From the IMG/VR virus record IMGVR_UViG_3300042542_004122, positions 1 to 64,000 of that record: a stretch of DNA of 64,000 nucleotides, one strand, 5' to 3'. Positions within the stretch are counted from its first letter, which is position 1. Each line of letters begins with the position of its first letter. Below the pieces are notes generated by a model. That model did no database searches. It was not told the DNA's origin and saw only the letters and a list, made by a program, of their open reading frames with translations. The position numbers and the translations under genes were made by a program. This document shows positions 5,174 to 47,450 of the stretch, piece by piece. Source of the stretch: a virus.

Positions 5174-5779
5174 TCAAATGTTGAATATATCTTTCCATCT
5201 TAATATCTTTCTTATCTCTTCACGAATTTCTTCAATATTTTCTGGATTATCAGATAATACGTGTTTAGTATCTTCTATAAATCCAAGATCTTCATACTCA
5301 AGGTCTAGTGAATATGAATATGGCAATTTTCTAAGATAGAAATCATTTCTCATTATTGCGGTTAAAGCATCTAGTAAAACTACTCGATCTATAGGTAGAT
5401 AATATTTTTCAGTAGTATCTCCTATATATTTAAAAAATTTTGATCTTTTTTGAGCTATATATAAACTAGAAATTTGTGCTACCTTATCTCTCCTACTTAA
5501 TCTTATTCTATAGCTATCCATGTCTAATAATTTTTCATACGGATTAAGATCATTTATTTGAATACCCATAAATTTAACTACATAGTTAGAGCTATTTTTA
5601 TAAGTTTTCATAAAATGTAATTTAAAGCTATTTATGCTGCCTATTGTAGAGTTAGTAAAAGGTTCTGAAAACACAGGTATTGAATATTTATTTCCTAGAT
5701 GATCTGCCAAAGCAGAAGACCCTGTTCTAAAATTAGCCAATATTACGATAGGAAAACGATCAACTTTGATATCTATCAC
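5174..5779 (-). CDS. Sulfotransferase-like protein
   Basis: 201 aa. PIVILANFRTGSSALADHLG (about 10-29) matches the PAPS phosphate-binding loop of Stf0/cytosolic-type sulfotransferases, and FSEPFTNS follows as expected. It would transfer sulfate from PAPS to an unknown acceptor, perhaps a glycan or a virion or cell-surface group. ATGA overlap with the upstream APS-kinase-like gene suggests coupled sulfate activation and transfer. Confidence 0.7.
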   Translation of the reverse strand: MIDIKVDRFPIVILANFRTGSSALADHLGNKYSIPVFSEPFTNSTIGSINSFKLHFMKTYKNSSNYVVKFMGIQINDLNPYEKLLDMDSYRIRLSRRDKVAQISSLYIAQKRSKFFKYIGDTTEKYYLPIDRVVLLDALTAIMRNDFYLRKLPYSYSLDLEYEDLGFIEDTKHVLSDNPENIEEIREEIRKILRWKDIFNI

Positions 5780-6552
5780 AAACCCATTTCCTTTCTGATT
5801 TTAGTAGCACTAATACTAGTAATACTCTCATCAAAATGTTCTTGTTCTATCTTATATCCAACATCTCTACCATAAGTGATGTTAACAATATTGGGGACAG
5901 GATAGACGATATACCTATTATTATATAGGCTATCTAGATCTTTATAAATCCGTTCGGTAACTTCCTTGAGCAAGAAAGGATTTTTATCATCATGACAGTC
6001 TCTCACCATAATAGCAACCTGTCCAGTTTTTGCTATGGCTCTCTCAAAAAGAGCGCGGTGACCTTGATGCCAGGGCTGCCAGCGACCTAACATTTGAACA
6101 GTAGGTTTCTTCCAATCAAATGTAGGCTTATCGTTTTTTAAGATCTGTTCGGCCAAGAGAGGTGCCCATTTTTTAGCATCAAACTCTGATATTCTAAAAT
6201 CATAGTAACCTCTGCTGGGTTTTTCAAATATAGCATTAGTATCTTCAAATCTACCACTCTCTATAGTATCCATCCATATGACCCAGTCTGGACTGTATAT
6301 CTCTCTCATTGCTGAGAGAGGGCAGACAAAATCTGCTATCACATATGTAGTCTTAAAATCTCTAGCTAAATAGCTCATTCTCTGGGCTTGTCGTATTCTA
6401 CCAGCAGTAGAGAAGTCCCAGTCGTTAGAGTTCTTTCTAACCTCGTCTGCATTTAGCCAAGTGACACCGTATTTCGATAGTATATCTACAAGCTCTTTAG
6501 CTAAAGTAGTTTTACCAGAACCAGGGAGTCCCATTATTAATATTTTTTGCAT
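5776..6552 (-). CDS. Fusion: APS-kinase-like P-loop domain + HxGH nucleotidyltransferase
   Basis: 258 aa. Start MQKILIMGLPGSGKTTLA chosen because the Walker A motif begins there; longer starts would run into the terminator upstream. N-terminal about 150 aa resembles adenylylsulfate kinase (GLPGSGKTT, LNADEVR). The C-terminal about 105 aa has GRWQPWHQGH and ISATKIRKEMG, the HxGH and ISxTxIR motifs of cytidylyl/adenylyltransferases such as NadM. With the adjacent sulfotransferase it could make PAPS, but the C-terminal substrate cannot be read from sequence. Confidence 0.75.
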   Translation of the reverse strand: MQKILIMGLPGSGKTTLAKELVDILSKYGVTWLNADEVRKNSNDWDFSTAGRIRQAQRMSYLARDFKTTYVIADFVCPLSAMREIYSPDWVIWMDTIESGRFEDTNAIFEKPSRGYYDFRISEFDAKKWAPLLAEQILKNDKPTFDWKKPTVQMLGRWQPWHQGHRALFERAIAKTGQVAIMVRDCHDDKNPFLLKEVTERIYKDLDSLYNNRYIVYPVPNIVNITYGRDVGYKIEQEHFDESITSISATKIRKEMGL

Positions 6553-6570
6553 ATAATTAATCCTAAGAAA

Positions 6571-6594
6571 AAAGGCAGGAGAGATCCTGCCTTT
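6571..6594 (-). terminator. Rho-independent terminator
   Basis: AAAGGCAGGA/TCCTGCCTTT with 4-nt loop; T run on the minus strand. It overlaps the last two bases of the SleB gene. Confidence 0.85.
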
Positions 6595-7072
6595 AGTGTG
6601 TTTGACGATAAAAACTGTGTCCGCCAATAGTTTCTATATATTCTATACGTCCAGTTTTAAGAGCGTGTTTGAACCAAGCTCTTGCACGTTTTGGAGTAAC
6701 ATTGTCAAAGTGGGTAGCACCTTGAGAAATGTCATTAGCATCTCCAGATAGAATTAGTCCTGCTATGGCTACACAGAATTCATATTCCATGCGGTCAAGC
6801 TTTCCTGCACTTCGTTGCTTCTTAGCGGTCCAAGAGAACTGCGGTTTCCCGTCTATCTTTTGATATACTATCTCACATGCTGATTTGTCTGCTTTCAACA
6901 TTCGATTGTATGTGACCAGGCCTACACGAAAGATACCTTCTGCAGGTTCTCCTCGAGATTCGTAATACATATTATCTGCCATACAACGAATGTCTTTAGC
7001 AGTAATATCCTTGCTTACGAAAGGTAAGGCTAAATAAGAAGCAATGATTGCTATTTTTAAGGTTTCAATCAT
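6593..7072 (-). CDS. SleB-like cell wall hydrolase
   Basis: 159 aa. N-terminal hydrophobic segment (residues 3-19) can act as signal or signal-anchor. MADNMYYESRGEPAEG (about 31-46), a VTYNRM and a C-terminal GATHFDN/HSFYR region match the Hydrolase_2/SleB amidase-like lytic transglycosylase family with its catalytic Glu. It probably cleaves peptidoglycan. Separate from the main lysis cassette at 28-30 kb, so it may be a second lysin. It has its own promoter and a hairpin in the leader. Confidence 0.8.
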   Translation of the reverse strand: MIETLKIAIIASYLALPFVSKDITAKDIRCMADNMYYESRGEPAEGIFRVGLVTYNRMLKADKSACEIVYQKIDGKPQFSWTAKKQRSAGKLDRMEYEFCVAIAGLILSGDANDISQGATHFDNVTPKRARAWFKHALKTGRIEYIETIGGHSFYRQTH

Positions 7073-14350: not shown

Positions 14351-15376
14351 TTACTTCATTGGTGTTAGTGTAAGAGCATTTTTACGCACAAGTTCTCTCT
14401 GTGTTTTCGTCAATGGCACTAGACCCTTTTTTTCAAGGTATCCATTCTCAGCCATGGAACGATCTGAAACATACTCAGCTATGAAATCTCTAATGCCAGG
14501 AATAACTTCAGCATGAGCATTCTTGACATAGACAAACAAGGAACGAGCGACTGGATATTTCTGTGTAGAGATATTTTCAAACTCTGGCTCTACCTCATCA
14601 ATCTTTAATCCAATAAGCTTGTCTACGTTTTCTTCCAAGAACGAGTATCCAAAGACTCCAATAATTAGATTGTTCTTGTTAGAAACCAGTCTCTGAACAA
14701 TTAGATTATCATTTTCACCCGCCTCAATGAATTTGCCATCTTCACGAATTGAAGAGCAGGCAGCTTGCTTCTGTCTTGCATCCTGCAGAGACTTGATTTC
14801 ATCGAAACTCTTGCAGCCATGATCCATTACCATTTCAACAAATGCATCGCGCGTCCCAGAAGTTGGAGGAGGACCCATGACTTCAATTGGAGCGTTTGGT
14901 AGTTTAGGATCAATCTCATTCCATTTCTGGTAGAAATTATTTACAAGCTTACCGTCCTTTGGCACCTGACGAGCCAAAGCAAGCCAAACGTGTTCGCGTG
15001 TCAAACTAAAAGGCTTTACATCCTTGCGAACCGCAAATACGATGCCATCATATCCAATCATTACTTCAGTAATGCTCGTTACACCATTTTTGGCGCAAAG
15101 TTCAATTTCTGATTTTGTGATCGGACGAGACGCATTTGAAATGTCTGGGTGTTGTGTTCCTATACCTGCACAAAACAGACGAAATCCACCACCCGTTCCA
15201 GTAGATTCTACAATAGGCGCCTTCAGACCTGATGTTCGACTGAAATTTTCAGCAACCGTTGTAGTAAATGGAAAAACTGTCGATGATCCAACAGCACGAA
15301 TTTGATCTCTTGCGTTTTGTGCATATGCCGTAGTACTAATTAATAAAATTGTAGTAGCTGTGATTAGTAATTTCAA
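14351..15376 (-). CDS. pstS: Phosphate ABC transporter substrate-binding protein PstS
   Basis: 341 aa periplasmic protein. Signal peptide about 1-20, then IRAVGSSTVFPFTTTVAENF (about 27-46), TGTGGGFRLFC and SGTRDAF, the conserved phosphate-cradle segments. TTG start with GGAG 6 nt upstream. Marine phages are known to carry pstS as an auxiliary gene to keep phosphate uptake high during infection. Codons are more GC-rich than in neighbours, fitting host origin. Own Pho-box-like promoter and own terminator. Confidence 0.92.
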   Translation of the reverse strand: MKLLITATTILLISTTAYAQNARDQIRAVGSSTVFPFTTTVAENFSRTSGLKAPIVESTGTGGGFRLFCAGIGTQHPDISNASRPITKSEIELCAKNGVTSITEVMIGYDGIVFAVRKDVKPFSLTREHVWLALARQVPKDGKLVNNFYQKWNEIDPKLPNAPIEVMGPPPTSGTRDAFVEMVMDHGCKSFDEIKSLQDARQKQAACSSIREDGKFIEAGENDNLIVQRLVSNKNNLIIGVFGYSFLEENVDKLIGLKIDEVEPEFENISTQKYPVARSLFVYVKNAHAEVIPGIRDFIAEYVSDRSMAENGYLEKKGLVPLTKTQRELVRKNALTLTPMK

Positions 15377-16413: not shown

Positions 16414-16731
16414 CTAAATACTAAAAGACTTCCCACACCCACATCCAGCTTTTTGATTCGGGTTTTTAAGTTTCAAACCGCTGCTTCCAATAGTCTGTTC
16501 GTAATCTAACTCTGTCCCAGCTACATATAGTAAACTCATACTGTCTACAAAAAACTTACAAGTTAAAAGATCTATCTCAAAGTCATCAGGTTCTGCACTA
16601 TCTACAAATTCATAGTTATACACAAAACCAGAACATCCTCCGCCCTTGACTTCTAATTTAACCGCCTGCTTATTGTTTTCTTTGCATAGATACCTAATAT
16701 AATCTCTAGCGATGGGAGTTAAGCTAAACAT
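16414..16731 (-). CDS. A-type iron-sulfur carrier (IscA/HesB/ErpA)
   Basis: 105 aa. GGGCSGFVY (about 31-39) and C-terminal AGCGCGKSF (about 95-103) provide the three invariant Cys of A-type Fe-S carriers. It inserts clusters into apo-proteins; homologs occur in several marine phage groups. ATG-side overlap of 8 nt with the carbamoyltransferase gene suggests they share a message. Confidence 0.92.
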   Translation of the reverse strand: MFSLTPIARDYIRYLCKENNKQAVKLEVKGGGCSGFVYNYEFVDSAEPDDFEIDLLTCKFFVDSMSLLYVAGTELDYEQTIGSSGLKLKNPNQKAGCGCGKSFSI

Positions 16732-18205
16732 TTTGTTTTTTGTAAATTGTATTGCCTACTACCAACACATCTATGTCTGTTGATTTAAATAAGTTCATGG
16801 CATTCTCAATCCAGCCTGCTATAGGTTTTCCTGCTTCGTTAAGGCTTGTGTTTAATAATAAAGGGCACCCCGATAGTTCATGGAAAACTTCTAACAATTT
16901 TCTAAAAGCATAGTCAAACGATTCATTGACAGTTTGAGCGCGACAAGTTCCGTCGACATGAGTTATAGCTTGTAAATTATCTTTTTGTGTTGTGCCTAGA
17001 TAAAGCATATACGGATTTTCAAAATCTAGATCAAAATATTCTTTGCCATACTCTTGCAAAACACTAGCTCCAAAAGGTCTGTAGTACTCTCTATTTTTAA
17101 CCCTATTAATTATATCTTTTCCATTTTTAATTCTTGGGTCCATTAGTATAGATCTGTGCCCTAATGCTCGTGGACCTATCTCACCATGTCCTTGATACCA
17201 TGCAACAATTTTACCTTCATTTAAAAATTTAGCTGTTTGATATATGGTATCAATAGTAGGTTGGCTATGTGGAGACTGATCAGACTGCATGAATGGATAT
17301 CTAGACATATTAAACTTAGGTAAATTTTTTGATTGTCTAAATAGTTCAAGTGTTCCAAAAGTTAATCCCTCATCGCTGCAATGTGGATATATTATGAGAT
17401 TGGGGTATTTTTTCTTTAACAACGTATTCCAAACAACATTTTGTGCTACTCCACCTGAATAGCCTATTCTCTCATGCGGTTTGAAATGTTTTTCAAAAAA
17501 TTCTAGTAGTAATTCGCCTATTCTAAAATGAATAGTGTGAGCAATATCTAATTTTTGTTGCAGAGGTAATGTTCTATCAACAAAATATAAATGATCGTCA
17601 GATGCAACTGTCCATTTCCAAGGTCTGTCTTTACGCATACCTTTAACTGCAGTGCTAGTATAGTTCATGTTGTACTTTAAAAGATTTTCATAATGTTTCA
17701 AATTTAATCTACCATAACTTTGCCAACCCATAAGTTTACCCGCAAGATCAAGGCCATGACCTTCAATATCTAAATAATTTGCTATTATCCCCAAACCGTC
17801 GCCAAAACTTACGCCAGAATTAGAGGTAAGTATTTGGCTTATAATTTTATCATCTCTAAAAATGCTACACCAAAGATCAGCGTTATCCCCTAATCCATCA
17901 ACTACTACATGAGCATCTATTTTTTCTTTTTCTAATATCTCTACACTATATGCATGCTTTCTATGATGCCCTTGATACTTTTGATGTTCTGAGTAGCTAA
18001 TATCTAAAAAGTTACCATTATATTTATTTTTACAATAAACAGCAATAAAATCTTGAATTTGAAATTCAACAGCGGACTTGCCAGTAATATAAAATCCAAA
18101 ATGTTTATTTTGTAAAAGCCTTTCAAATTTTAAATAGCCTACTTTAGTATTAAAATAAGCTATGGAAGCATCATGATAAGGATGTGATGCTACTATGCTT
18201 AACAT
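16724..18205 (-). CDS. NodU/TobZ-family carbamoyltransferase
   Basis: 493 aa from MLSIVASHPYHDASIAY. The N-terminal Kae1-like domain binds ATP/carbamoyl-adenylate (HDASIAY, GYSGGVAQNVVWN); the C-terminal YrdC-like domain carries GPRALGHRSILMDP and PLLLNTSLN. It transfers carbamoyl to hydroxyl groups of sugars or nucleosides. Next to a glycosyltransferase-like gene, so surface-glycan or DNA-base carbamoylation are both possible. Confidence 0.9.
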   Translation of the reverse strand: MLSIVASHPYHDASIAYFNTKVGYLKFERLLQNKHFGFYITGKSAVEFQIQDFIAVYCKNKYNGNFLDISYSEHQKYQGHHRKHAYSVEILEKEKIDAHVVVDGLGDNADLWCSIFRDDKIISQILTSNSGVSFGDGLGIIANYLDIEGHGLDLAGKLMGWQSYGRLNLKHYENLLKYNMNYTSTAVKGMRKDRPWKWTVASDDHLYFVDRTLPLQQKLDIAHTIHFRIGELLLEFFEKHFKPHERIGYSGGVAQNVVWNTLLKKKYPNLIIYPHCSDEGLTFGTLELFRQSKNLPKFNMSRYPFMQSDQSPHSQPTIDTIYQTAKFLNEGKIVAWYQGHGEIGPRALGHRSILMDPRIKNGKDIINRVKNREYYRPFGASVLQEYGKEYFDLDFENPYMLYLGTTQKDNLQAITHVDGTCRAQTVNESFDYAFRKLLEVFHELSGCPLLLNTSLNEAGKPIAGWIENAMNLFKSTDIDVLVVGNTIYKKQNV

Positions 18206-19148
18206 AATTTCTTGCACAACTTAGCAATCGATTCTGAATACGAGATTCTGAGTATAAAGCTCTTAGGTGTTTACTATACTTTAGATCGTCTATCAATCTT
18301 TTCAACATTTTCAATTGAGTATTTTTATTAATTTCAGATGTTAATCCTATATATTTTAAAAAGGTATTAATGTCTGAAAGTTCTTCTTCTTTATTGATTA
18401 GTGCTAAAAACTCTCTATGAAAACCAAAAACACTGATTTCACATTTGGTAGTATAAGTATTTAGTAATTCATATAATAGCCTGTAATTTTTATCAATCCA
18501 GAATTTTTTCCAAAATGTTCTATATTGTACTTTTAGTTCTATTTCATTAATAAAATTATCTGGTAAAAGATATGAGTAGAATAAAAATTCGCAAGGTTTA
18601 TCTTGATTAAGAAGAACATCAATCGCTTCTTCTATGTTTTCAATTTTATCTAGATACTTTTTTTGAACATAAAAAGGCGTATGAGGTGTTAGAAAATAGT
18701 CTAATGATTTTTTTTTAAAGTAGTTACTGTAATCATCTACACATTTTTTTGATGGAAAAATATCATGTGCATGTATAGGGCTAATATTACCTGAGCCAAT
18801 AGTATTTTTCCAATTTGAATAGCTACTATTTCTAATAAAAAAATTCAATGGACCTAGAAGGAGGTAATCACCATCTATAAACTGAGAAACAAGTATTTTA
18901 ATTCCCTGATGTCTAAACCATCCATTCTTATAAGAATTTACCTTTGCAAAATCTTTGACACTTAAAACTTTTACAGAATTTTTGTCTTTATAATATTTCT
19001 CAATTAAAACATTCCACTTTTCAAAATCTGTATATTCATTAATAATTATCCAATGAACATACGAATCTATAAATTTGGATATTGATTCTAGTTGAAGTTC
19101 AAAAACTTCAAAATCACGGTCACAAACAATAGTAACTATATTCAACAT
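18171..19148 (-). CDS. Glycosyltransferase-like protein, 325 aa
   Basis: MLNIVTIVCDRDFEVFELQLESI opening plus DGDYLLLGPLNFFIRN resemble DUF6492/GT-A nucleotide-sugar folds, in which an acidic pair holds the metal. Low-complexity Lys/Ile/Asn composition. Overlaps the carbamoyltransferase start by 35 nt, so the two products likely act on the same substrate. Confidence 0.55.
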   Translation of the reverse strand: MLNIVTIVCDRDFEVFELQLESISKFIDSYVHWIIINEYTDFEKWNVLIEKYYKDKNSVKVLSVKDFAKVNSYKNGWFRHQGIKILVSQFIDGDYLLLGPLNFFIRNSSYSNWKNTIGSGNISPIHAHDIFPSKKCVDDYSNYFKKKSLDYFLTPHTPFYVQKKYLDKIENIEEAIDVLLNQDKPCEFLFYSYLLPDNFINEIELKVQYRTFWKKFWIDKNYRLLYELLNTYTTKCEISVFGFHREFLALINKEEELSDINTFLKYIGLTSEINKNTQLKMLKRLIDDLKYSKHLRALYSESRIQNRLLSCARNYVKHSSITSLS

Positions 19149-21519: not shown

Positions 21520-21591
21520 TGGTGGCTTGACCTGGAATCGCACCAGAATGGCAGACTTATGAGATCCGCTCGGTTAACTAAACCTCAAGCC
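21520..21591 (-). tRNA. tRNA-Met or tRNA-Ile2 (CAT), elongator
   Basis: Acceptor GGCTTGA/TCAAGCC (fully paired position 1-72), anticodon loop CTCATAA, CCA encoded. Short 72-nt form. Met versus lysidine-Ile cannot be settled. Confidence 0.85.
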
Positions 21592-21597
21592 TTGCAT

Positions 21598-22876: not shown

Positions 22877-22953
22877 TGGCGCCTCTGGCAGGAGTCGAAC
22901 CCACAACCGCTCGGGTAGAAACCGATTGCTCTATCCAATTGAGCTACAAAGGC
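22877..22953 (-). tRNA. tRNA-Arg (TCT)
   Basis: Anticodon loop TTTCTAC, acceptor GCCTTTG/CAGAGGC, CCA encoded. Confidence 0.92.
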
Positions 22954-22970
22954 ATTTAACTTTATGATTA

Positions 22971-22999
22971 ATAATATCAAGTTTAGAGATAACTTGCAA
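22971..22999 (-). promoter_or_regulatory. Promoter TTGCAA-17-TATTAT
   Basis: -35 22994-22999, -10 22971-22976; drives tRNA-Arg leftward. Confidence 0.7.
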
Positions 23000-23007
23000 C
23001 TAAAAAA

Positions 23008-23081
23008 TGGCACCGGCACAAGGACTTGAACCCTGACAAACAGATTTGGAGGCTGTCGTGCTACCATTACACTATGCCGAT
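23008..23081 (-). tRNA. tRNA-Trp (CCA)
   Basis: Anticodon loop CTCCAAA, acceptor ATCGGCA/TGCCGGT, discriminator G as in tryptophan tRNAs, CCA encoded. Confidence 0.88.
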
Positions 23082-23085
23082 AATT

Positions 23086-23171
23086 TGGTGCCCGCAGCCA
23101 GACTTGAACTGGCACGCCTCTAAAGGCTACGGATTTTAAGTCCGTTGCGTCTGCCATTCCGCCATGCGGGC
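23086..23171 (-). tRNA. tRNA-Leu (TAA)
   Basis: Class II, anticodon ACGGA-CTTAAAA-TCCGT, long variable arm, CCA encoded. Confidence 0.95.
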
Positions 23172-23176
23172 AATAT

Positions 23177-23252
23177 TGGTAGCCGTAGAAGGAGTTGCAC
23201 CTACAACATCTCACTAATCAGGTGAGCGCTCTGCTAATTGAGCTATACGGCT
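23177..23252 (-). tRNA. tRNA-Ile (GAT)
   Basis: Anticodon CTCAC-CTGATTA-GTGAG, acceptor AGCCGTA/TACGGCT, CCA encoded. Confidence 0.95.
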
Positions 23253-23257
23253 ACAAT

Positions 23258-23351
23258 TGGTAGTCCCACCAGGATTCGAACCTGGACTGCTCTCTAATCT
23301 GGAGACAATGCCGAATATAAGTCGGGTGTTCTACCGTTAAACTATGGGACC
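23258..23351 (-). tRNA. Class II tRNA with TAT anticodon (Ile-ATA?)
   Basis: Acceptor GGTCCCA/TGGGACT, D-arm GTT/AAC, anticodon loop CTTATAT, T-stem CCAGG/CCTGG, CCA. A 24-nt variable region holds a TCTC-CAGATTA-GAGA stem-loop. Isoleucine tRNAs are class I, so this long-arm TAT tRNA is unusual. Confidence 0.75.
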
Positions 23352-23360
23352 ATAAAAATA

Positions 23361-23436
23361 TGGAGGGCCCCGTCGGAGTCGAACCGACAACCTACAACTT
23401 AAAAGGATGCTGCTCTGCCAATTGAGCTAGGGGCCC
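23361..23436 (-). tRNA. tRNA-Lys (TTT)
   Basis: Anticodon loop CTTTTAA, acceptor GGGCCCC/GGGGCCC, CCA encoded. Confidence 0.92.
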
Positions 23437-23588
23437 TGATGTTACTGACAGCATTATCACATCCTAAGTAGGTTCTAAATACTCGGTTTTATCTACATCA
23501 TACTCTCGGGTCATATAGCGTACGCAACTGAATCGTGCCTTATATGGCTTGCAATAGTAGACCGGGCATACCGAAACCGGTAAAAAAA

Positions 23589-23663
23589 TGGTGGGCCGTG
23601 ACGGGATTGAACCGCCGACATTCGCCGTGTAAAGACGCTGCTCTGCCGCTGAGCTAACAGCCC
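23589..23663 (-). tRNA. tRNA-Val (TAC)
   Basis: Anticodon loop TTTACAC, acceptor GGGCTGT/ACGGCCC, CCA encoded. The 150-nt gap to tRNA-Lys shows no gene. Confidence 0.92.
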
Positions 23664-23738
23664 ATAAAAGCCCCTGCCGGCCCGTGAGTTTCTTTCGTGG
23701 GCAGGAACGGTATGTTTTATATCAAAAACATACAAAAC

Positions 23739-23814
23739 TGGTAGAGCGTAGGGGATTCGAACCCCTGTTAACGGATTGAAAGCCCGCGATCCTAGGCCGC
23801 TAGACGAACGCTCC
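23739..23814 (-). tRNA. tRNA-Glu (TTC)
   Basis: Anticodon loop CTTTCAA, acceptor GGAGCGT/ACGCTCT, CCA encoded. A GTATGTTTT/AAAACATAC hairpin lies just downstream (about 23710-23733). Confidence 0.93.
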
Positions 23815-23819
23815 TCAAT

Positions 23820-23894
23820 TGGTTGCAGAGACAGGACTTGCACCTGTGGCCTTCTGGGTATGAGCCAGACGAGCTGCTTCTGCTCCACTCTGCG
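23820..23894 (-). tRNA. Initiator tRNA-fMet (CAT)
   Basis: Acceptor CGCAGAG/CTCTGCA with the unpaired C1-A72 that marks bacterial initiator tRNAs. D-arm GGAGCAG...CAGCTCG and anticodon stem TCTGG/CCAGA with loop CTCATAC. Close to the bacterial initiator consensus; only two consecutive G-C pairs border the loop instead of three. Confidence 0.88.
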
Positions 23895-23905
23895 TTATGA
23901 TACTT

Positions 23906-24007
23906 GATTGTGTGCATTTTTATGAGAATCGAACTCACTCAACTCCGAACGCGGCAGAGCTATTTACCATTATATCGGCGTGGCCTTTGCCTTCCATGCA
24001 CACAATC
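23906..24007 (-). ncRNA. tRNA-like element closed by 12-bp helix
   Basis: GATTGTGTGCAT/ATGCACACAATC enclose a core with T-arm GTGAG-TTCGATT-CTCAT, D-arm-like TAATGGTAAATAG and CTCTG-CCGCGTT-CGGAG. Loop position 33 is C, not T, and there is no CCA, so it is not a normal tRNA. Confidence 0.5.
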
Positions 24008-24101
24008 AAATATCATTGATACTTGTTTCCCGAATTTTACTCTCTGCGTTGTCGCCGCAGATCCTTCATCCGACAATGTTTTTCAAAACATCAACTTATA
24101 T

Positions 24102-24130
24102 ATAATACTAAAACTTAGAGCATCTAGCAA
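24102..24130 (-). promoter_or_regulatory. Promoter TTGCTA-17-TATTAT
   Basis: -35 24125-24130, -10 24102-24107; start of the fMet-to-Lys tRNA array. Confidence 0.75.
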
Positions 24131-24161
24131 TATAAAAATGCAATTTTATACTCTAGACGCA

Positions 24162-24203
24162 AAAAATGCGATAATCTAGGTTACCCTAAACTATCGCATT
24201 TTT
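24162..24203. terminator. Bidirectional terminator
   Basis: 12-bp stem AAAAATGCGATA/TATCGCATTTTT with 18-nt loop. Confidence 0.75.
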
Positions 24204-24205
24204 GT

Positions 24206-24509
24206 AGGAAAGCTGAGATTACACTTTCTATATTAGCACTTCAAGAGGTACCCTCTATTTGCAGTAGAGGTTTTCTTGACATCCACCAGATGCCTGCTAA
24301 GGTCACCCAGTATACCAACAGTATCGCCTTTTAAAGTCTGGCAGTAGACTTGACGTTATACGCTACTCTATATTATACCGTCCGCTGACCTTGCGAGCCA
24401 TTAAGCCTTGCGAGCTACGAATTTTTTAATATAAACTGATTTCACCTTGCGGGTTACATCAGACCAAGTTCTCTTTCGAGCTTGGTATTAGATACCTTTC
24501 ACATATAAC
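24206..24509. other. Structured non-coding DNA
   Basis: No gene seen. Long-range repeats include AAGGTCA...TGACCTT (24299-24392), which enclose AAGTC...GACTT and GATAC...GTATAC hairpins like a distorted clover leaf. Several short CCTTGCGAG-type words recur near 24388-24450. Confidence 0.5.
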
Positions 24510-24627
24510 CGAGGCAGACTTTGCTTTTTTAAAACATTGACTGGATTTGAACCAGCGTCCGTTTGCTTCCAACGCAAATGCTCATCCACTGAGCTACAAT
24601 AATAACCTACTGCGATGTGCTGCCTCG
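24510..24627 (-). ncRNA. tRNA-Pro-like (TGG) core inside long helix
   Basis: CGAGGCAG/CTGCCTCG flank a core (24535-24604) with D-arm GCTC/GAGC, anticodon TTTGC-GTTGGAA-GCAAA and T-stem CTGG/CCAG. Acceptor pairing is poor and CCA absent. Confidence 0.55.
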
Positions 24628-25056
24628 TTGCTCCGTATGGTTTTGACATACAAAATACAACACACCACGTATCTTTCGCGACGCGCGCTACTCGATCGTA
24701 TTTTGCGACGATGTATAAGCATTTATAGCTTATCCACTACCGCTGATACTGCAAAAATGCCTTTAGTTGCTTAAACTTCAGACAGAGATGCTACCCTTTG
24801 TTCTACCAACTGCTAGATTGGTGTTGTAGTGAAGTCGGCACCACCCGTTACATTCCAATAACTTAGGTTCCCCTTTCGGGCCTATAAGCTATCGTTTTCT
24901 CACTACACCTAGTTCATTGTTACCTCCGTTGCCGAAGGCTAGGAACTGGGCTTGCTTAAGTGGGCCACTCGGAGAGTGGTGCGGTTATGTAGGGATTACC
25001 GCTTTTATCACATTACTGTGACTATCCTTATGGGGCTTAAGCGCCCCAACTCATTA
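24628..25056. other. Structured non-coding DNA
   Basis: No gene seen. Inverted repeats: TGTAGTGA...TCACTACA (24825-24907), CTTAGG...CCTATAAG, CCACTC-gga-GAGTGG, GCGGT...ACCGC and GGGGC...GCCCC. Looks like a chain of structured RNAs; family unknown. Confidence 0.5.
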
Positions 25057-25063
25057 TTTATCT

Positions 25064-25092
25064 ATAATATCAAACTTTTAAGTAACTACCAA
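25064..25092 (-). promoter_or_regulatory. Promoter TTGGTA-17-TATTAT
   Basis: -35 25087-25092, -10 25064-25069; would transcribe the structured region leftward. Confidence 0.7.
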
Positions 25093-25182
25093 CTAAAAAA
25101 TGACTTTTCTTTGTCGGTCCTCTTTAAGAGTTTTATTTTGTAGGAGAGGAGGTTTTACCTGTCTCTCCGCTTCAGTTTTTAT

Positions 25183-25211
25183 ATATTACTAAACTTTTTA
25201 GCGTTGAGCAA
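25183..25211 (-). promoter_or_regulatory. Promoter TTGCTC-17-TAATAT
   Basis: -35 25206-25211, -10 25183-25188; below tRNA-Pro, pointing into the structured region. Confidence 0.65.
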
Positions 25212-25250
25212 TATAAAAATAAAAGAATTTGGTATAGTGCTATTTTTAAA

Positions 25251-25328
25251 TGGTCCGGGTAGCAGGATTTGAACCTACGACCCCTCCGCCCCAAACGGAG
25301 TGCTCTAGCCAGACTGAGCTATACCCGG
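25251..25328 (-). tRNA. tRNA-Pro (TGG)
   Basis: Anticodon CTCCG-TTTGGGG-CGGAG, acceptor CCGGGTA/TACCCGG, CCA encoded. Confidence 0.95.
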
Positions 25329-25338
25329 TTAAATTATG

Positions 25339-25414
25339 TGGAGGACTCGACAGGAGTTGCACCTGCATATTACCGATTTGCAGTCGGCTGCCTAACTATT
25401 CGAACCACGAGTCC
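25339..25414 (-). tRNA. tRNA-Cys (GCA)
   Basis: Anticodon GCCGA-CTGCAAA-TCGGT, discriminator T as in cysteine tRNAs, CCA encoded. Confidence 0.93.
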
Positions 25415-25416
25415 GT

Positions 25417-25491
25417 TGGGGTGACTACTCGGATTTGAGCCGAGTCTGACAGAATCACAATCTGTAGTGCTGCCATTACACTATAGCCACC
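25417..25491 (-). tRNA. tRNA-His (GTG)
   Basis: Anticodon ACAGA-TTGTGAT-TCTGT, G-1 opposite discriminator C as required for histidine, CCA encoded. Confidence 0.94.
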
Positions 25492-25496
25492 ATAAC

Positions 25497-25572
25497 TGGT
25501 GCCCCAGACAAGACTTGCACTTGTTTCCTTACCCTTACCAAGGGTCTGTTCAGCTATATGAACTTCAGGGGC
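25497..25572 (-). tRNA. tRNA-Thr (GGT)
   Basis: Anticodon loop TTGGTAA, acceptor GCCCCTG/CTGGGGC, CCA encoded. Confidence 0.9.
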
Positions 25573-25578
25573 GTAATA

Positions 25579-25654
25579 TGGTAGGTTGTCTCTGAATCGA
25601 ACAGAGTTCCTTCGCTCTTCAGGCGAATGTGTGCACCAGCTTCACCAACAACCC
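25579..25654 (-). tRNA. tRNA-Phe (GAA)
   Basis: Anticodon TTCGC-CTGAAGA-GCGAA, acceptor GGGTTGT/ACAACCT, CCA encoded. Confidence 0.94.
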
Positions 25655-25655
25655 A

Positions 25656-25732
25656 TGGAGTACCTAGTAGGACTTAAACCCACAACCTCTCAGTTCGTAG
25701 CCGAGTGCTCTGTTCAATTGAGCTATAGGTAC
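25656..25732 (-). tRNA. tRNA-Arg (ACG)
   Basis: Anticodon CTCGG-CTACGAA-CTGAG, acceptor GTACCTA/TAGGTAC, CCA encoded. Needs A34-to-inosine editing by host TadA. Confidence 0.93.
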
Positions 25733-25738
25733 AAGAAA

Positions 25739-25815
25739 TGGTAGACCTCTTCGGACTTGAACCGAAAACCCTCAGTTTAAGAGACTGATGCTCTAACCAA
25801 TTGAGCTAGAGGTCC
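25739..25815 (-). tRNA. tRNA-Lys (CTT)
   Basis: Anticodon TCAGT-CTCTTAA-ACTGA, acceptor GGACCTC/GAGGTCT, CCA encoded. Confidence 0.94.
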
Positions 25816-25818
25816 ATA

Positions 25819-25907
25819 TGGCGGAGAGCCGGAAGTACGATTTCCATCCCTTTGCAGGCACCCTCAGTTTAGCAAACTGTGCTAGCTCCCCGCTAGTTGG
25901 CCTCTCC
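25819..25907 (-). tRNA. tRNA-Ser (GCT)
   Basis: Class II, anticodon ACAGT-TTGCTAA-ACTGA, discriminator G, CCA. Its first 15 nt overlap the end of the upstream gene, whose TAG stop is the tRNA's D-arm. Confidence 0.9.
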
Positions 25908-26102
25908 AGAAATTTGTTTATAATGATGTAAACAGTATTTACGATGCTTATAGTGAATATGAGCATCATCAAAACAGTTATGAAAAGCACAAAGCTCTAG
26001 CTTGTTTTTAAACACAGCTAGAGCGTGCCCAGCGGCGTCAGCGTCTAGTTGGGTCATCCAATCTACAAACGCGCGGCGAGCATCCTGCAATTCATCATTC
26101 AT
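25893..26102 (-). CDS. Hypothetical His/Cys-rich protein, 69 aa, leaderless-type start
   Basis: MNDELQDARRAFVDWMTQL helix, then CAFHNCFDDAHIHYKHRKYC, a likely zinc-binding HNH-remnant-like segment. TTGCTT-17-TAAGAT ends 6 nt before ATG. The last five codons, including the TAG stop, lie inside tRNA-Ser(GCT), so RNase P cleavage of the tRNA would remove the stop codon. Confidence 0.65.
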   Translation of the reverse strand: MNDELQDARRAFVDWMTQLDADAAGHALAVFKNKLELCAFHNCFDDAHIHYKHRKYCLHHYKQISGEAN

Positions 26103-26108
26103 ATAGAT

Positions 26109-26137
26109 ATCTTACTACAGAAATAAGTATTAAGCAA
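26109..26137 (-). promoter_or_regulatory. Promoter TTGCTT-17-TAAGAT, 6 nt before ATG
   Basis: -35 26132-26137, -10 26109-26114, ATG at 26102; drives the gene plus the Ser-to-Pro tRNA array. Confidence 0.8.
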
Positions 26138-26151
26138 GATAAAAATGAAAT

Positions 26152-26241
26152 TGGCGGAGTGATGGCGGAATCGAACCCCTGGCCCGTAGGCTCCAACCGC
26201 TTTCAAGGCGGTGCTAGTATCCCCGACTAGACATGCACTCC
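26152..26241 (-). tRNA. tRNA-Ser (TGA)
   Basis: Class II, anticodon loop CTTGAAA, discriminator G, CCA. First 15 nt overlap the end of the zinc-ribbon gene upstream. Confidence 0.92.
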
Positions 26242-26367
26242 AAATTCTTTGTAGTTAACCCATTTGAGATATAGGTGATGGCACACGGGACATTCTGTTG
26301 GTCCCGCATAATCTTGCCACTCTGTGGCACAACGCATACATCTAAAATGGGCTATTTGGCGATTCAT
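26227..26367 (-). CDS. Zinc-ribbon protein, 46 aa, between two tRNAs
   Basis: HFRCMRCATEWQDYAGPTEC then PVCHHLYLKW: two CxxC pairs, a rubredoxin-like or ribbon zinc site. ATG lies 7 nt after the CCA of tRNA-Leu(TAG) and the TAG stop is in the D-arm of tRNA-Ser(TGA), the same layout as 25893-26102. Confidence 0.65.
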   Translation of the reverse strand: MNRQIAHFRCMRCATEWQDYAGPTECPVCHHLYLKWVNYKEFGVHV

Positions 26368-26374
26368 TGTAAAT

Positions 26375-26458
26375 TGGTGCGACTAGAGGGATTTGCACCC
26401 CCACCTCTCTCGAGACTAGTTCCTAAGACTAGCGCGTCTGCTGTTTCGCCATAGTCGC
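26375..26458 (-). tRNA. tRNA-Leu (TAG)
   Basis: Class II, anticodon GCTAGT-CTTAGGA-ACTAGT, acceptor GCGACTA/TAGTCGC, CCA encoded. Confidence 0.94.
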
Positions 26459-26464
26459 ATTATC

Positions 26465-26539
26465 TGGTGCCCACAGAGAGGATTGAACTCCCGACCTTCG
26501 GTTTACAAAACCGCTGCACTACCGCTGTGCTATATGGGC
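26465..26539 (-). tRNA. tRNA-Thr (TGT)
   Basis: Anticodon loop TTTGTAA, acceptor GCCCATA/TGTGGGC, CCA encoded. Confidence 0.92.
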
Positions 26540-45294: not shown

Positions 45295-45562
45295 TAAGTT
45301 GTACGGATTCTATCACAACGATACTCTTTTAGAGTATTTGAATGCTAGATTCAGCGAGTTATCTGCTGTTACAAAAAATCTTGAGTATATTACCTTAGAT
45401 GAAACATCTGATAAAGCTCAACTATGGGGTGTTAACGTATTTCCTACGATAATACTTAGTAAGCATGATCTTATGGGACCAATTTTACAAGGCGCATACC
45501 CAGGACATACATTATTACAGTGGTTGCAAAAGTATAACGTAGAAGTGAGTAAAGATAATTAA
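45287..45562 (+). CDS. Thioredoxin/glutaredoxin-like fold protein lacking CxxC
   Basis: 91 aa. YGFYHNDTLLEYLNARFSE and the cis-Pro segment WGVNVFPTIILS, then GPILQGAYPGHTLLQWL, fit a glutaredoxin/thioredoxin fold. The active-site cysteines are missing (HND in place of CPYC), so a redox role is unlikely; perhaps a scaffold or binding module. 1-nt overlap with rpsU. Confidence 0.6.
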   Translation: MYNKLYGFYHNDTLLEYLNARFSELSAVTKNLEYITLDETSDKAQLWGVNVFPTIILSKHDLMGPILQGAYPGHTLLQWLQKYNVEVSKDN

Positions 45563-45831
45563 TGAAACTATTTGTTAAACATAACGACGTAACCAAAGCG
45601 TATAAGATTTTAACTAAAAAATTAAACGATGAAGGTATTTTTAAGACTTTAAAATCTAAGGAACATTATCTTAGTAAGAGTCAGAAAATACGTGCTAAAA
45701 AGAAAATAGCCCTATCTAGGTTCAGAAAAGAACAGAAAAAGAAAAGAATGATAGAGGCTAGGCAAGAAGAGAAGTTTTTACTTTACTCTAAAAAATCAGG
45801 TAACTTTCAGCAGCCTAGAAGATACTCTTAA
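45562..45831 (+). CDS. rpsU: Ribosomal protein bS21
   Basis: 89 aa. MKLFVKHNDVTKAYKILTKK, GIFKTLKSKEHYLSKSQK and IRAKKKIALSRFRK align with bS21, in the alphaproteobacterial style (LVxxNxVxxALxxLKKKLxxEGxF). A C-terminal extension (about 65-89) is phage-specific. bS21 sits near the anti-Shine-Dalgarno end of 16S rRNA, so a phage copy could reprogram initiation on infected-cell ribosomes. Confidence 0.88.
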   Translation: MKLFVKHNDVTKAYKILTKKLNDEGIFKTLKSKEHYLSKSQKIRAKKKIALSRFRKEQKKKRMIEARQEEKFLLYSKKSGNFQQPRRYS

Positions 45832-46306: not shown

Positions 46307-46472
46307 CTACTTTAAAGGTCAAGTCGTAGAATTTAGTTATAATTACTGGTCCATCTATAATGAGGCTGGTAAGCTAATTCTGACTACTAAAGATAAAAAA
46401 TATGCTGAGGCTAAATTGCAACAACTAAATAAGGCTTTAGCAGACAAGATCTCGTTGATAGCAGCGAAATAA
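46287..46472 (+). CDS. Hypothetical protein, 61 aa, GTG start
   Basis: FQLKHNYFKGQVVEFSYNYW then YAEAKLQQLNKALADKI. The stop codon directly precedes the acceptor piece of the tmRNA. Function unknown. Confidence 0.5.
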   Translation: MFQLKHNYFKGQVVEFSYNYWSIYNEAGKLILTTKDKKYAEAKLQQLNKALADKISLIAAK

Positions 46473-46730
46473 GCATACTGGACACGGGGGCAGTGCCCGT
46501 CATCTCCACCATAAATATGTCGATTAGTAAACATTGACATATTTATAATGGGGATGAATTAGGATCGACAGGTGTGTAAAGGTTGAAGTAGAGATAGGTG
46601 CGCGAGCGACCTCTAATCGCAAGAAATCAATAAATGCTAACGATAATAGCATCGAAGAGATCCGCCTAGCGGCATAACTTCTGCGGTATGGGCTCCACCG
46701 TATTACCCAACGGGCCTATTCCTTTTAGAA
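46473..46730 (+). ncRNA. ssrA: Circularly permuted (two-piece) tmRNA
   Basis: Acceptor piece: GCATACTG, T-arm ACGGG-GGCAGTG-CCCGT, then CATCTCC-A-CCA (46501-46511). A 38-nt intervening segment folds as TAAATATGTC...GACATATTTA. The coding piece starts GGGGATG (46550-46556), which pairs perfectly with CATCTCC including G3-U70, the alanine identity pair. CAG(G)TGTGT pairs with GCATACTG as helix P2. The tag frame 46636-46677 reads ANDNSIEEIRLAA plus stop. Rescues stalled ribosomes and tags nascent chains for proteolysis. The 3' end is approximate. Confidence 0.92.
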
Positions 46731-46739
46731 AGATTTTTA

Positions 46740-47450
46740 ATGTTTATTTATTGGAGAGTATGCGAATTACAAAAATCTATTAGCTACGTTAATAGATGGA
46801 AAAACTATAACAAAACAGACATCTTAAAAAGATGCTGGTTATCAGTTCAGAGTAGCGTATCTCCAGACGATCAAATCTATCTAATAGAAGATAATGTAAC
46901 CCATGAGACTTTAACTTGGTTAAGAGAGACGTGCAAAGCAAAGCTAAGTATCATACACGTACCAGAACATGCATGGGAATATCATCAACATACAGTAACC
47001 TTGATAGATACGCTAGAATCCTCTGTTAAACAGTATGAGCAAGATGTTCATCTTATTTTAGAAGATGATTATCTGTTTACTCCAAACGGATTAAATACTT
47101 TTAAGTTGTCCGCTGAAAATTGGAATCAAGGATTTATAGCTCCTTACGACTATATTGATAGATATAAAGAAATAAAACCCACTCAAGTTCTTTTAGGCCC
47201 AGATAGACATTGGCGTACAGTAGATAGTATTACTATGACTGTAGCAGCCAAAGGTTTTATCTGGGTTAAGTATTTAAAAGACTTAAAAGATGCAGCTCCT
47301 ACCAGCAATGATAAAGTCTTCGATAAGATTTTATCTGAAGTGCCATGTATCTCTCCAATGCCTTCTTTATGCAGTCATCTTACCGAACATCATAATAGTC
47401 CTTACATGGATATAGAAAATATCTGGAAATATTACGAGAACAATCTATGA
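46740..47450 (+). CDS. Glycosyltransferase-like protein, 236 aa
   Basis: RCWLSVQSSVSPDDQIYLIEDN and VHLILEDDYLFTPNGL (DxD-like EDD) indicate a GT-A fold related to GT2/GT25 enzymes. First gene of a tightly overlapping glycan cluster, ATGA to the epimerase. Confidence 0.7.
   Translation: MFIYWRVCELQKSISYVNRWKNYNKTDILKRCWLSVQSSVSPDDQIYLIEDNVTHETLTWLRETCKAKLSIIHVPEHAWEYHQHTVTLIDTLESSVKQYEQDVHLILEDDYLFTPNGLNTFKLSAENWNQGFIAPYDYIDRYKEIKPTQVLLGPDRHWRTVDSITMTVAAKGFIWVKYLKDLKDAAPTSNDKVFDKILSEVPCISPMPSLCSHLTEHHNSPYMDIENIWKYYENNL

What the first reader, a model, noticed from the sequence alone, without database searches (positions are those of the whole stretch)
23820..23894. Phage initiator tRNA-fMet
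The C1-A72 mismatch, D-arm and CAT loop identify an initiator, distinct from the CAT tRNA at 21520 that has a paired 1-72. Initiator tRNAs are uncommon in phage arrays and are the one tRNA needed by leaderless 70S initiation.
Basis: partly seen in the sequence, partly recalled or inferred. Interest (0 to 1): 0.8.

Follow-up and report, generated by a model that had tools for sequence, protein, structure and literature searches.

The report
Phage initiator tRNA with swapped elbow
A marine phage carries its own copy of the tRNA that starts every bacterial protein; such genes are known in phages, but this one belongs to a phage class in which a normally fixed contact at the tRNA's elbow (G18-U55) has been exchanged for another (A18-G55), and it also differs from bacterial initiators at the base where a known host toxin cuts.

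Summary
The minus-strand gene at 23820-23894 is a complete, CCA-templated initiator tRNA (C1xA72, A11:U24, CAU). A profile of other initiators scores it 55.1 bits, against 18.3 for other CAU tRNAs. Phage initiator tRNAs are not new: one canonical query matches 270 of 50,697 phage records.

What is unusual was not in the finding. The elbow contact G18-U55 is replaced by A18-G55. Viral initiators found by G55 alone carry A18G19 in 119 of 120 stretches (92 of 93 unique); those found by A18 carry G55 in 107 of 109 parsed. Initiators listed from two bacterial phyla show G18G19 in 260 of 260 rows. The base beside the VapC cut, A38, is C38 here: 38 viral stretches have this pattern, against 5 in 84,980 genomes.

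Best reading: a working initiator that keeps initiation going when the host tRNA is depleted, with an elbow that cannot carry Gm18/Psi55. The identity and covariation are shown; the evasion is inferred.

The parts
23820..23894 (-). initiator tRNA-fMet gene, CCA included
23888..23894 (-). 5' acceptor strand CGCAGAG; position 1 = C, unpaired with A72
   Evidence: sequence
23871..23885 (-). D-arm GAGC-AGAAGCA-GCTC: A11:U24 kept, 7-base loop, A18G19 instead of G18G19
23853..23869 (-). anticodon arm UCUGG-CUCAUAC-CCAGA: C38 instead of A38; U29:A41, G30:C40, G31:C39
23831..23847 (-). T-arm ACAGG-UGCAAGU-CCUGU: G55 instead of U55, C56 kept
23823..23830 (-). 3' acceptor strand CUCUGCA and discriminator A73
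23820..23822 (-). templated CCA
22877..26539 (-). tRNA array in which the gene lies

Best explanation
The gene encodes a real initiator tRNA of a marine T4-like phage, used in the phage's own translation supplement (30 tRNAs by Infernal, a permuted tmRNA, a bS21 ORF, a GOLLD RNA). It supplies initiator during infection when the host's initiator is depleted or attacked. Two departures from bacterial initiators fit that use. First, C38 sits at the base next to the bond that VapC cuts (A38/C39), so the phage copy should be cut poorly. Second, the D-loop/T-loop contact 18-55 is A18-G55 instead of G18-U55, with G19-C56 kept, so the elbow holds without Gm18 and Psi55. Shown: initiator identity, the 18-55 covariation, the phage enrichment of A18-G55 and C38 in the sets sampled. 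Inferred: expression, charging, formylation, the geometry of A18-G55, and any escape from a nuclease.
For: Identity. Selection on the fold: in 14 distinct A18-G55 initiators 95.9% of 294 cells pair, 10 of 21 pairs have changes on both sides (slid controls 1-4 pairs), A11:U24 is kept in 14 of 14, and position 1-72 is unpaired in 11 of 14. Covariation: searched by G55 with a free D-loop, 119 of 120 stretches (92 of 93 unique) have A18G19; searched by A18, 107 of 109 parsed (80 of 82 unique) have G55C56 (scans 78 and 79, counted). All tRNAs then fetched: G55C56 goes with A18G19 in 21 of 21 unique, U55C56 with G18G19 in 718 of 723, U55U56 with G18A19 in 14 of 18. In the window the 5 ARAGORN tRNAs with G55 are the ones whose D-loop has A18G19. 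Bacteria: 260 of 260 listed initiator rows have G18G19 (150 listed rows of 194 genomes; 110 rows of 198 genomes); 0 of 199 genomes of a third phylum match the G55 pattern. C38: 38 viral stretches against 5 stretches in 84,980 genomes; 16 of 34 array-borne A18-G55 initiators have C38 against 8 of 85 elsewhere. Horizontal spread: the identical gene lies in 7 of the loci examined (window included) while the DNA match to the window there ends within a few bases of the gene. Papers: VapC cuts between A38 and C39 (PMC4105405, passages, citing Winther and Gerdes 2011, which is not held); phage tRNAs altered in the anticodon loop (PMC10264068, passages).
Against: No expression, charging or cleavage data. 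The host is unknown, so whether it has a VapC is unknown. 90 of 120 G55 initiators keep A38. All 7 phage records read from the annotated collection keep A38 and G18-U55. C38 is not odd in tRNAs as such: Ala, Arg(TCT) and Val in this window have it too. PMC10264068 (passages) says phages generally avoid the target tRNA-fMet of VapC-LT2. C38 and A18-G55 were associated (3 of 9 against 3 of 144, p 0.003), but on a tree only 5 independent contrasts on supported branches exist and they show nothing. A18-G55 also occurs in elongators of this phage (Leu, Ile, Glu, Cys), so it is not an initiator device. Bacterial controls for position 18 cover three phyla, no Proteobacteria as far as the named seed genomes tell.
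Confidence: 0.6

Rival explanations
1. A functional initiator kept only to raise initiator supply or match a fast, host-degrading infection; C38 and A18-G55 are drift tolerated by the fold, with compensation at 18-55, and no nuclease is involved.
For: 270 phage records match a canonical initiator and 90 of 120 G55 initiators keep A38: supply alone would explain these. Compensated elbow changes occur at 19-56 too (U56 with A19, 14 of 18).
Against: C38 is very rare in bacterial genomes (5 stretches) and concentrated in arrays; A18-G55 recurs in many viral contigs and was not seen in the bacterial rows.
Confidence: 0.3
2. The variant serves mainly to work without host elbow modification (Gm18, Psi55, which need G18 and U55) so that the tRNA matures fast or escapes a host factor that reads the modified elbow.
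For: G55 cannot be pseudouridylated and A18 is not G18; reviews call Psi55 universally conserved and say elbow modifications stabilise it (PMC7912444, PMC4810234, passages). The pair is swapped as a unit.
Against: In the ten array stretches listed (L314, L316, L318-L325) the initiator was the only G55 tRNA the scan found, so independence from modification is not a general need. No data on modification.
Confidence: 0.25
3. A decaying or captured host gene with no function.
For: It lies among several divergent tRNAs, some missed by ARAGORN.
Against: Compensatory changes across 14 sequences, identity in 7 loci with differing flanks, templated CCA.
Confidence: 0.03
4. An elongator tRNA-Met or tRNA-Ile(CAU).
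For: CAU anticodon only.
Against: Profile scores 55.1 against 18.3 bits; A11:U24 and C1xA72.
Confidence: 0.02

Closest known systems
Bacterial initiator tRNA-fMet, Proteobacteria type
   Same: C1xA72, G2:C71, C3:G70, A11:U24, CUCAUA, G30:C40 and G31:C39, templated CCA
   Different: C38 for A38, A18-G55 for G18-U55, 7-base D-loop, U29:A41
Phage initiator tRNAs of Caulobacter phages CcrBL9 and phiCbK, Mycobacterium phage Myrna, crAss-like cr60_1
   Same: initiator tRNA in a phage genome
   Different: those four have A38, G18G19 and U55
Anticodon-loop-altered phage tRNAs of PMC10264068
   Same: change at a nuclease site relative to bacterial tRNAs
   Different: there in tRNAs of mycobacteriophages with known host VapCs; here in the initiator, host and nuclease unknown
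Staphylococcal peptidoglycan tRNA-Gly (recalled, no call)
   Same: recalled to lack G18G19 and to have UGC in the T-loop
   Different: not an initiator; the recall was not checked

Membership tests
Bacterial initiator tRNA | no Watson-Crick pair at 1-72 | tested here: met
   C1xA72
Bacterial initiator tRNA | A11:U24 in the D-stem | tested here: met
   14 of 14 relatives
Bacterial initiator tRNA | G2:C71 and C3:G70 | tested here: met
   14 of 14 and 13 of 14 (one U:G)
Bacterial initiator tRNA | G:C pairs at 29-31/39-41 | tested here: inconclusive
   two of three kept, 29-41 is U:A; of 160 unique G18 initiators only 69 have all three, so the third pair does not define the class
Bacterial initiator tRNA | best match to the initiator profile among isotypes | tested here: met
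   55.1 against 18.3 bits
Bacterial initiator tRNA | charged with Met and formylated | not testable with these tools
   needs bench work
Canonical tRNA elbow | G18 with U55 | tested here: not met
   A18 and G55
Canonical tRNA elbow | G19 with C56 | tested here: met
Nuclease-insensitive phage tRNA | base change at the known cleavage site relative to bacterial tRNA | tested here: met
   C38; pattern rare in bacteria
Nuclease-insensitive phage tRNA | resists the host's nuclease | not testable with these tools
   host unknown
Elongator tRNA-Met or tRNA-Ile(CAU) | paired 1-72, pyrimidine 11 : purine 24, best profile match | tested here: not met

The most novel reading that the evidence does not exclude
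Phages have repeatedly evolved a distinct class of initiator tRNA whose elbow is held by A18-G55 and so cannot carry Gm18 or Psi55; in tRNA-array phages it is combined with C38, giving an initiator that host tRNases and perhaps elbow-reading host factors cannot attack, so that the phage controls initiation in a cell whose own initiator is destroyed.
Probability: 0.3. Interest if true: 0.75.

Novelty: new variant of a known kind. Interest (0 to 1): 0.55.

Why it matters
The 18-55 contact is treated as universal in tRNA; a natural, recurrent A18-G55 exchange gives a direct test of what G18, U55 and their modifications are for. Initiator tRNA is also a known target of VapC toxins, so a phage copy altered at the cut site tests the nuclease-evasion theory of phage tRNAs on a tRNA that the theory's authors said phages tend to avoid.

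Tried and rejected
Leaderless initiation: no support. Amber or opal recoding because of the CTA tRNA: reading TAG or TGA through does not lengthen the longest ORFs in a telling way. A shared phage backbone as the reason for the identical tRNA: the window's DnaB-like protein matches only 2 of 19 records weakly, bS21 1 of 19, and GOLLD was found in 0 of 19 with no positive control ringing; many of these records are short fragments, and some do share a few other genes or tRNAs with the window. Deformylase, formyltransferase or RNA ligase beside the tRNA: not among the Pfam families printed for 75 ORFs in two pooled scans (2 of 27 families were not shown) or for the ORFs scanned singly. A tree for the number of origins: parsimony needs 31 changes, but the 41-column tree has few supported branches, 5 contrasts, so I claim only that the exchange is probably recurrent. 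Papers searched for A18-G55, the purine trap and phage tRNA elbow changes: searches gave no paper; the listing was seen, and the two T-loop/elbow reviews were read by passages. This covers open-licence PMC only. I recall, without a check, laboratory suppressor tRNA selections by the Steinberg group that may include A18-G55.

The five bacterial C38 stretches: L200 and L204 do not look like whole tRNAs after the anticodon arm; L201 is one of 5 copies in its genome, the other four A38; in the genomes of L202 and L204 an A38 copy is present; L203 is the only match in its genome. In some searches one row each is the seed genome chosen for C38; apart from these, 0 rows have C38 and 2 rows (one genome) have U38. 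The 260 rows were counted by eye. Some loci (L314-L325) repeat earlier loci and were de-duplicated in the scripts; the window is left out.

Full report
What was checked. The window is 64,000 bases of a 72,161-base virus record from IMG/VR. Its 684-aa cyclase is closest to those of Methylophilales phage Melnitz (38.7%) and Pelagibacter phage HTVC008M (35.5%), and it bears an alphaproteobacterial-type permuted tmRNA, so a marine T4-like phage of an alphaproteobacterium or a similar marine host is likely. The host is unknown. At 23820-23894, minus strand, lies tRNA-Met(CAT).

Identity. The sequence reads CGCAGAG-TG-GAGC-AGAAGCA-GCTC-G-TCTGG-CTCATAC-CCAGA-AGGCC-ACAGG-TGCAAGT-CCTGT-CTCTGCA-A-CCA. 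C1xA72, G2:C71, C3:G70, A11:U24 and templated CCA are initiator features (recalled from textbook knowledge of tRNA-fMet; CCA templating in PMC5143459, passages). A profile of other initiators, none with A18, scores it 55.1 bits; the next, other CAU tRNAs, 18.3. So it is an initiator, not elongator Met or Ile2.

Is it unusual for a phage? No. A canonical initiator query matches 270 of 50,697 phage records at E<=1e-4, 254 over at least 80% of the query; a few of these are bacterial records or tiny contigs filed as phages, and host-derived att copies cannot be excluded. The window's own sequence finds only 9 records, none above 90% identity. A tRNA-fMet of phage pEa_SNUABM_47 is reported in PMC7760394 (passage). 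PMC10264068 and PMC12482277 (passages) discuss tRNA-fMet as absent from phages of a VapC-bearing enteric host.

What is unusual: the elbow. In nearly all tRNAs G18 contacts U/Psi55 and G19 pairs with C56 (PMC7912444, PMC4810234, passages). Here 18-19 is AG and 55-56 is GC. In the window 5 of 28 ARAGORN tRNAs (Glu-CTC, Ile-GAT, Met-CAT, Cys-GCA, Leu-TAG) have G55, and these five have A18G19 (chance of such a coincidence about 1e-5); a further tRNA-Thr-like gene at 25500-25572, missed by ARAGORN, reads the same way by eye. Over all tRNAs fetched by then, 21 of 21 unique G55C56 tRNAs have A18G19, 718 of 723 U55C56 tRNAs have G18G19 and 14 of 18 U55U56 tRNAs have G18A19, i.e. both elbow contacts covary. 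To test this without circularity I scanned IMG/VR twice: for initiators with G55 whatever the D-loop and with A18 whatever the T-loop. Of the first, 119 of 120 stretches (92 of 93 unique) have A18G19; of the second, 107 of 109 that parse as whole tRNAs (80 of 82 unique; 127 raw matches) have G55C56 and 2 have U55C56. Of the 119, 34 lie in fetched stretches with five or more tRNAs, 18 in stretches with 2-4 and 67 with at most one.

Bacterial controls. In two phyla 159 of 194 and 88 of 198 genomes match an initiator pattern; 260 of 260 listed rows have G18G19 (one search lists 150 rows and says there are more). In a third phylum 0 of 199 genomes match the G55 pattern, without a positive control there. 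I had no centre genome for sampling Proteobacteria.

Position 38. Bacterial initiators end the anticodon loop in A37 A38; this one has C38. The C38 pattern gave 38 stretches in viral contigs (complete scan) and 5 stretches in a collection of 84,980 bacterial and archaeal genomes; two of the five do not look like whole tRNAs and three of the five genomes also hold A38 copies. Among A18-G55 initiators C38 is in 16 of 34 array stretches and 8 of 85 others (Fisher p 1.4e-5, not corrected for relatedness). VapC of Shigella and Salmonella cuts between A38 and C39 (PMC4105405, passages). I infer that C38 hinders such a cut. Against this: 90 of 120 G55 initiators keep A38, and the seven phage records read from the annotated collection keep A38.

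Conservation and spread. In 14 distinct A18-G55 initiators the cloverleaf is kept by compensatory changes (95.9% of cells paired; 10 of 21 pairs with double changes), 1-72 is unpaired in 11 of 14 and A11:U24 is in all. The identical gene sits in seven of the loci examined (window included) and the DNA match to the window ends at the gene's edges; the window's DnaB-like protein has only weak matches in 2 of 19 of these records. This suggests transfer of the single gene between phages.

How it most likely works. Shown: an initiator tRNA with intact identity elements, under selection, inside a phage array. Inferred: it is transcribed, charged, formylated and used when host initiator is scarce or cut; C38 lowers cleavage; A18-G55 gives an elbow without Gm18/Psi55. 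The phage also encodes a bS21-like protein (45562-45831) and a tmRNA, both acting on translation, which fits a phage that takes over initiation and rescue; Melnitz has the same two genes (PMC9004378, abstract and passages).

Verdict. The A18-G55 elbow with C38 makes it a new variant of a known kind. I found no report of it in the searches, which cover open-licence papers only.

Noticed in passing
24210-24668 (-): GOLLD RNA (205 bits) with a tRNA-Pro(TGG) lacking CCA at 24532-24603 inside it, in a stretch that the family model leaves unpaired.
   Followed up: partly
46419-46768 (+) and 45562-45831 (+): Permuted alphaproteobacterial-type tmRNA (tag ANDNSIEEIRLAA) close to a bS21-like ORF; both are reported for Melnitz.
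   Followed up: partly
11618-11691 (-): tRNA with an amber (CTA) anticodon, called tRNA-Pyl by ARAGORN; reading TAG through did not clearly lengthen the longest ORFs.
   Followed up: partly
25656-25732 (-): tRNA-Arg(ACG) with G18A19 and U55U56, the same kind of elbow compensation at 19-56; 14 of 18 unique tRNAs with U55U56 show it.
   Followed up: partly
12809-12879, 25500-25572, 26156-26241 (-): tRNA-like genes missed by ARAGORN but seen by Infernal (the last as tRNA-Sec below threshold). The first seems to have G56 in its T-loop.
   Followed up: no
21521-21595 (-): tRNA-like element with a CAU anticodon, T-loop UGCGAUU and CCA, abnormal D-arm; no tool recognises it.
   Followed up: partly
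5776-6627 (-): P-loop kinase-like ORF (APS kinase/Kti12 hits) with a 72% relative beside the tRNA array of an otherwise different phage (L314); possible RNA-repair kinase.
   Followed up: no
8796-9548 (-), 16724-18217 (-), 14351-15376 (-): Bax1-I family protein, Nol-type carbamoyltransferase and a PBP_like_2 (PBP superfamily) protein; S-adenosylmethionine decarboxylase matches two ORFs of a pooled scan, not singled out.
   Followed up: no
between 28483 and 61873: CsgG and CsgF curli-export families among phage ORFs (ORFs not singled out).
   Followed up: no
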